Shown here: in pieces, positions 43,927-43,960 of the stretch
Layout of the letters: each line of letters starts with the position of its first letter
How positions within the stretch are numbered: the first letter of the stretch is position 1
From: Haloplanus ruber
GTDB lineage: Archaea > Halobacteriota > Halobacteria > Halobacteriales > Haloferacaceae
Assembly (NCBI RefSeq): GCF_024494725.1
Contig: NZ_JANHDK010000001.1
Span: 1,426,001-1,490,000 of the forward strand
Reading direction: 5' to 3'
DNA length: 64,000 nucleotides
Notes under the pieces: model-generated
The model's database searches: none
Told to the model about the DNA's origin: nothing
Seen by the model: the letters and a program-made list of their open reading frames with translations, nothing else
Translations under genes and position numbers: made by a program

Positions 43927-43952
43927 ACCACTCAGTAGTATTACTGGGTGGT
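43927..43952. promoter_or_regulatory. Palindromic operator over the thi4 transcription start
   Basis: ACCACTCAGTA, spacer GTAT, TACTGGGTGGT: 11-base arms with a single mismatch. It fills the 26 bases between the thi4 ATG (43926) and the TATA box, so any bound protein would block initiation. The ThiR-like regulator gene lies 1.5 kb away. I infer a ThiR operator; no other copy was found in the window. Confidence 0.6.
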
Positions 43953-43960
43953 TCTTATAG
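43953..43960 (-). promoter_or_regulatory. TATA box of thi4
   Basis: The minus strand reads CTATAAG, centred about 30 bases before the ATG at 43926, followed on the start-codon side by the palindrome. Confidence 0.6.

What the first reader, a model, noticed from the sequence alone, without database searches (positions are those of the whole stretch)
43927..43960. Palindrome sits exactly over the thi4 start site, 1.5 kb from a ThiR-like regulator gene
The 26 bases between the thi4 ATG and its TATA box are an 11-4-11 inverted repeat with one mismatch. A protein bound there would block initiation. The ThiN-domain regulator at 40580 is the obvious candidate repressor of a thiamine gene, responding to thiamine phosphate. 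Archaeal ThiR regulation is known, but I do not recall the haloarchaeal operator and could not compare it.
Basis: partly seen in the sequence, partly recalled or inferred. Interest (0 to 1): 0.65.

Follow-up and report, generated by a model that had tools for sequence, protein, structure and literature searches.

The report
Thiamine-gene operator in haloarchaea (ThiR type)
The palindrome really is a conserved on/off switch in front of the vitamin B1 gene thi4 in salt-loving archaea, almost certainly bound by the known B1-sensing regulator ThiR; the same switch also marks a neighbouring gene of unknown function as part of vitamin B1 metabolism.

Summary
Window 43927-43952 is an 11-4-11 inverted repeat with one mismatch, filling the gap between the thi4 ATG and its TATA box. 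Such a repeat is not rare by itself (2.8 expected per 64 kb, 9 seen). Conservation makes the case: the same 26-mer abuts the thi4 start in 79 of 80 named haloarchaeal loci and in all 33 thi4 genes found in 40 sampled genomes. It also precedes thiC (11/11) and, in other genomes, thiB, thiD, thiE and tenA; in 5 of 7 genomes without thi4 it sits before thiB. Reversed control patterns gave no hits in 146 genomes. So it is the operator of a haloarchaeal thiamine regulon.

Two refinements: the operator is better read as two abutting 13-bp palindromes, and the genome holds a second HTH-ThiN paralogue that is not excluded.

Beyond the finding, the DUF7001 gene 12 bp downstream of thi4 belongs to the same regulon: where unlinked it carries its own operator (26/37), where operonic it does not (0/17). 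It may act in the Thi4 thiazole branch. Binding and ligand response were not tested.

The parts
43927..43952 (-). ThiR-type operator of thi4: two abutting 13-bp imperfect palindromes (43940-43952 and 43927-43939), together an 11-4-11 inverted repeat; directly abuts the thi4 ATG
   Evidence: sequence; chance estimate; conserved in 79/80 named thi4 loci; symmetry analysis; 33/33 thi4 genes of 40 sampled genomes
43954..43960 (-). TATA-like box (CTATAAG) of the thi4 promoter; in 80 loci the A+T peak lies at -31 to -28 from the ATG, directly upstream of the operator, which fits a leaderless transcript
   Evidence: sequence; position profile
43000..43926 (-). thi4, ADP-thiazole synthase family, the gene controlled
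   Evidence: Pfam PF01946 2e-59, TIGR00292 6.1e-63
42199..42987 (-). DUF7001/DUF6775 protein gene, starts 12 bp after the thi4 stop codon on the same strand: probable second gene of the thi4 operon
   Evidence: PF22529 2.7e-108, PF20565 2.8e-86; unlinked orthologues carry their own operator, 26/37, operonic ones 0/17
40580..41521 (+). thiR (clade A): N-terminal HTH, C-terminal ThiN ligand domain; start codon overlaps the stop of the dCTP deaminase gene (ends 40583)
   Evidence: ThiN PF10120 5.2e-48 at residues 139-308, HTH_3 1.4e-7; dcd TIGR02274 4e-68; ThiN tree

Best explanation
The palindrome is the operator through which a ThiR-family repressor switches off the thi4-DUF7001 operon when thiamine phosphates are plentiful. 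Shown: a 26-bp element of two abutting 13-bp palindromes (consensus ACYACYNRGTNNT-ACYACYNRGTNGT) lies between the TATA box and the start codon of thi4 throughout the haloarchaea and recurs before other thiamine genes. Inferred: ThiR (two dimers, one per 13-bp unit, or a tetramer) binds it when loaded with thiamine phosphate and so blocks RNA polymerase at the start site; when thiamine phosphate runs low it lets go and thi4, DUF7001 and thiC are made. The window's ThiR (40580-41521) is the most likely protein.
For: Conserved abutting the thi4 ATG in 79/80 named loci and in 33/33 thi4 genes of 40 sampled genomes, at least 15 bits in 30. Same element at the start of thiC, 11/11 loci, two of them weakly, including the own genome. 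Before thiB (TIGR01254) in genomes lacking thi4 (G019, G021, G023, G025, G034), thiD/thiDN, thiE, tenA in others. In the own genome a 3-mismatch search finds thi4, thiC and one weak site; the reversed control finds none; at 1 mismatch 66/146 genomes of the order hit and control hits are 0 in all 146. Only 9 further hits of 15 bits or more in 1.04 Mb of thi4 loci, seven of them at six DUF7001 starts. Regulator: HTH + ThiN, ThiN similar to solved 2PHP and 2PB9, Arg/His positions kept in 76/79 clade-A proteins; clade A lies within the flank of thi4 in 42 of 80 named loci plus the window, always same orientation. The two sampled genomes in which only clade-B regulators were found (G031, G033) have the two weakest thi4 operators. 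No Rfam RNA element in the region. Published: ThiR reported in all Haloarcula and Natrinema species examined (PMC12029414).
Against: No binding, expression or start-site data here. A second HTH-ThiN protein (clade B, 44% identical overall, 53% in the HTH) exists in the same genome and in other species sits next to thi4 (L006, L026, L049, L077) or thiC (L082, L091), so it may bind the same sites. The ThiDN gene of this genome has no operator.
Confidence: 0.88

Rival explanations
1. The operator is real but its main reader in this genome is the second HTH-ThiN paralogue (clade B, G000:C1:579517-579981), or both paralogues share it.
For: Clade B has the same architecture, a near-identical recognition helix (SQAAVSQY against SQSAVSKY) and lies beside thi4 or thiC in several species. 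All 12 genomes of this genus have three ThiN proteins, one of them clade B.
Against: Several genomes with a single ThiN protein, of clade A, still carry the operator (G012, G021, G025); the two genomes in which only clade-B regulators were found have the weakest thi4 operators; clade B in this genome has no thiamine gene nearby.
Confidence: 0.2
2. The palindrome acts in the RNA, as a hairpin, attenuator or riboswitch, rather than as DNA.
For: An 11-4-11 repeat would form a hairpin if transcribed.
Against: It fills the space between the TATA box and the ATG, with the TATA peak 28-31 bases upstream of the ATG in 80 loci, so the expected start is at or beside the ATG and the repeat is not in the message; the element is also a direct repeat of period 13, which a hairpin does not need; no Rfam match.
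Confidence: 0.04
3. Chance palindrome, or a generic promoter feature of haloarchaea.
For: Nine such repeats exist in the window and 2.8 are expected.
Against: Position-exact conservation over the class and restriction to thiamine genes.
Confidence: 0.01

Closest known systems
Archaeal ThiR regulon (Rodionov et al. 2017, doi 10.1128/JB.00743-16; title seen as cited in PMC12029414 and PMC10746257, content from my own memory)
   Same: HTH-ThiN regulator, palindromic operators before thiamine biosynthesis and transport genes, Halobacteria among the lineages covered (memory)
   Different: The double 13-bp palindrome, the DUF7001 targets and the clade A/B split are described here from the sequences; I could not read the paper to see whether they are already in it
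Haloferax volcanii ThiN-domain repressor (Hwang et al. 2017, doi 10.1128/JB.00810-16; HVO_0662 near thi4 HVO_0665 in PMC4215014)
   Same: Same gene neighbourhood type: HTH-ThiN gene close to thi4; repression of thi4 and thiC (from memory)
   Different: H. volcanii has no DUF7001 match (control genomes); the present genome uses ThiDN and has no ThiE above cut-off
TPP riboswitch (thi-box)
   Same: Controls thiamine genes at their 5' end in response to thiamine phosphates
   Different: RNA element; none found here

Membership tests
ThiR regulator family (window 40580-41521) | N-terminal HTH DNA-binding domain fused to a C-terminal ThiN domain, without the ThiD kinase domain | tested here: met
   HTH_3 1.4e-7 at 24-56, ThiN 5.2e-48 at 139-308; separate from the ThiDN clade with full support in the quick tree
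ThiR regulator family (window 40580-41521) | Thiamine-phosphate binding residues of ThiN kept (Arg of GRI and His 21 positions later) | tested here: met
   alignment with the genome's ThiDN and clade B; pattern kept in 76 of 79 clade-A proteins; residue roles from memory
ThiR regulator family (window 40580-41521) | Ligand-dependent binding to the operator and repression in vivo | not testable with these tools
   needs gel shift and transcript measurement
ThiR operator / thiamine regulon | Palindromic element at the promoters of several thiamine biosynthesis and transport genes | tested here: met
   thi4, thiC, thiB, thiD(N), thiE, tenA
ThiR operator / thiamine regulon | Sequence agrees with the published halobacterial ThiR consensus | not tested
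   neither 2017 paper is held
TPP riboswitch | Match to the Rfam TPP model at the 5' end of thi4 | tested here: not met
   no Rfam match up to E = 1 in 42100-44200

The most novel reading that the evidence does not exclude
The operator controls an operon of thi4 plus a DUF7001 gene, and DUF7001 proteins (weak fold resemblance to archaemetzincins but no HExxH motif) are an uncharacterised partner of Thi4 in the thiazole branch, for example serving the ADP-thiazole-to-thiazole-phosphate step that is still unassigned in haloarchaea, or supplying or maintaining the self-sacrificing Thi4 enzyme.
Probability: 0.35. Interest if true: 0.6.

Novelty: new member of a known kind. Interest (0 to 1): 0.4.

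Why it matters
It pins down a position-exact DNA element that marks thiamine genes in haloarchaea and can be used to read the regulon of any haloarchaeal genome; it follows the pathway (thi4 and thiC in makers, thiB in importers). Read that way it brings an unknown family, DUF7001, into thiamine metabolism, where a step after Thi4 has no assigned enzyme (PMC4215014). It also shows that many haloarchaea carry two HTH-ThiN regulators, a question that can be tested by single deletions.

Tried and rejected
Palindrome statistics alone: not convincing. The 2017 ThiR papers: not held. A recurrent hit in this genus (for example G010:C1:3222772, G008:C1:2620878) upstream of non-thiamine genes: starts GTCNCC rather than AYYAC and sits away from a start codon; taken as unrelated. 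Own-genome third pattern hit at G000:C1:1062362 (3 mismatches): no sensible gene start beside it, taken as chance. A NUDIX motif near thi4 in genomes lacking DUF7001: none found in 14 loci, so no simple swap of DUF7001 for a linked NUDIX enzyme was seen. Fold search of the DUF7001 model: only archaemetzincin-like hits at E 0.002-0.007 with TM-scores of 0.37-0.41 on a pLDDT 70 model; suggestive only. The ThiN tree is the quick version; the careful search did not finish.

Full report
Observation. On the thi4 strand the window reads CTATAAG-A-ACCACCCAGTA-ATAC-TACTGAGTGGT-ATG. The repeat occupies 43927-43952, with one mismatched pair among eleven; the ATG is 43926-43924 and the TATA-like box 43954-43960. 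Markov-simulated sequence gives 2.8 repeats of this quality per 64 kb and the window has nine, so the repeat alone would not be worth much.

Conservation. Eighty named thi4 loci from haloarchaea were collected. In 79 of them the 26 bases before the thi4 ATG are a version of the same element, a few of them weak (L003, L004, L080); the exception is L070. The consensus is ACYACYNRGTNNT ACYACYNRGTNGT ATG. The position-weight matrix is symmetric about the centre of the 26-mer (r = 0.84), each 13-mer is symmetric by itself (0.82, 0.81), and the two halves match as direct repeats (0.81), while other 13-base frames are not symmetric. The A+T peak at -31 to -28 from the ATG sits directly upstream, so the element covers the stretch from just below the TATA box to the start codon, where a bound protein would obstruct initiation of a leaderless message (the leaderless start is inferred, not measured).

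Regulon. thiC begins with the same element in 11 of 11 loci, two of them weakly; in the own genome it reads ATTATCTAGTGATATAACCTAGTTAT CG ATG. Among 40 sampled genomes, 33 have thi4 and all 33 have the element at its start, with three weak ones. Five of the seven genomes without thi4 carry it at the ATG of a lipoprotein of the thiamine-binding protein family or its close look-alikes (G019, G021, G023, G025, G034; two representatives of this group of proteins pass the TIGR01254 cut-off), and single genomes carry it before thiE, tenA and thiD/thiDN. In the own genome three sites pass three mismatches, thi4, thiC and a weak one, and the reversed pattern none. At one mismatch 66 of 146 genomes of the order have hits and none has a control hit.

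Regulator. The protein at 40580-41521 has an N-terminal HTH and a C-terminal ThiN domain; the ThiN part is related to the solved MJ0236 domain (2PHP) and keeps the Arg and His positions that, from memory, matter in thiamine phosphate synthase. A tree of 111 ThiN domains gives three groups: ThiDN enzymes, the group of the window protein (clade A), and a second HTH-ThiN group (clade B) with a CxxC-type motif (quick tree). Clade A lies within the fetched flank of thi4 in 42 of the 80 named loci, always in the same orientation. In Haloferax volcanii HVO_0662, a ThiN homologue with an HTH, lies near thi4 HVO_0665 (PMC4215014). The own genome also has a clade-B gene at G000:C1:579517. Clade B lies beside thi4 or thiC in some species, so it cannot be excluded as a reader of the operator; against it, genomes with a single clade-A protein still have the operator, and the two sampled genomes in which only clade-B regulators were found have the weakest thi4 sites.

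Downstream gene. The DUF7001/DUF6775 gene (42199-42987) starts 12 bp after the thi4 stop codon (one search prints 16 because it counts from the last coding base). Of 17 named loci with this operonic arrangement none has an operator at the DUF7001 start; of 37 in which the gene is separate, 26 do, above the 99.9th percentile of background (Fisher p = 5e-7, treating loci as independent, which they are not fully). DUF7001 occurs in 18 of the 40 genomes, all with thi4, and in none of the 7 without (p = 0.01). It is absent from H. volcanii. Its predicted structure resembles archaemetzincins weakly, without the HExxH motif. It belongs to the regulon with good confidence; its function is a guess, and the fact that 15 thi4-bearing genomes lack it argues against an indispensable universal step.

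What is known. That archaea use ThiR, a ThiN-domain regulator, for thiamine genes is published (titles cited in PMC12029414 and PMC10746257; the papers themselves are not held). From memory, Halobacteria were included, the motifs were called palindromic, and thiamine phosphate promoted DNA binding in a crenarchaeal ThiR. The finding is thus a further member of a known kind, confirmed here by comparison, with the tandem-palindrome layout, the paralogue question and DUF7001 as possible additions.

Limits. No experiment was possible; the regulator-operator link rests on co-occurrence, architecture and neighbourhood. Counts over related genomes are not independent.

Noticed in passing
window 42199-42987 (-); L054, L081, L035, L048, L055, L021: DUF7001/DUF6775 gene follows thi4 by 12 bp here and carries its own thi4-type operator where it is unlinked; unknown member of the thiamine regulon.
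   Followed up: partly
G000:C1:579517-579981 (L167 2464-3402, -): Second HTH-ThiN protein (clade B, 312 aa) with a Cys-rich GCDLC segment, present in all 12 genomes of the genus, no thiamine gene beside it here.
   Followed up: partly
G000:C1:652114-653373 (L088): The window's genome has thiC whereas none of its 11 sampled congeners does; gain or loss of the pyrimidine branch within the genus.
   Followed up: no
L006, L026, L049, L077: Clade-B regulator gene lies directly beside thi4 in these loci; the thi4 operators of L006, L049 and L077 are of a slightly different type (TAACACCC or TAATAGCC right half).
   Followed up: no
window 44041-45012 (+): Glutathione S-transferase-like gene (GST_N_2/GST_C_2) divergent from thi4, its start 88 bp from the operator; kept beside thi4 in other genomes of the genus.
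   Followed up: no
G010:C1:3222772, G008:C1:2620878, G003:C7:2790884, G004:C1:3058078, G001:C1:1866531: Recurrent element ending in GAGTGGTAACAYCTAT in this genus, resembling half of the operator, not at a thiamine gene.
   Followed up: partly
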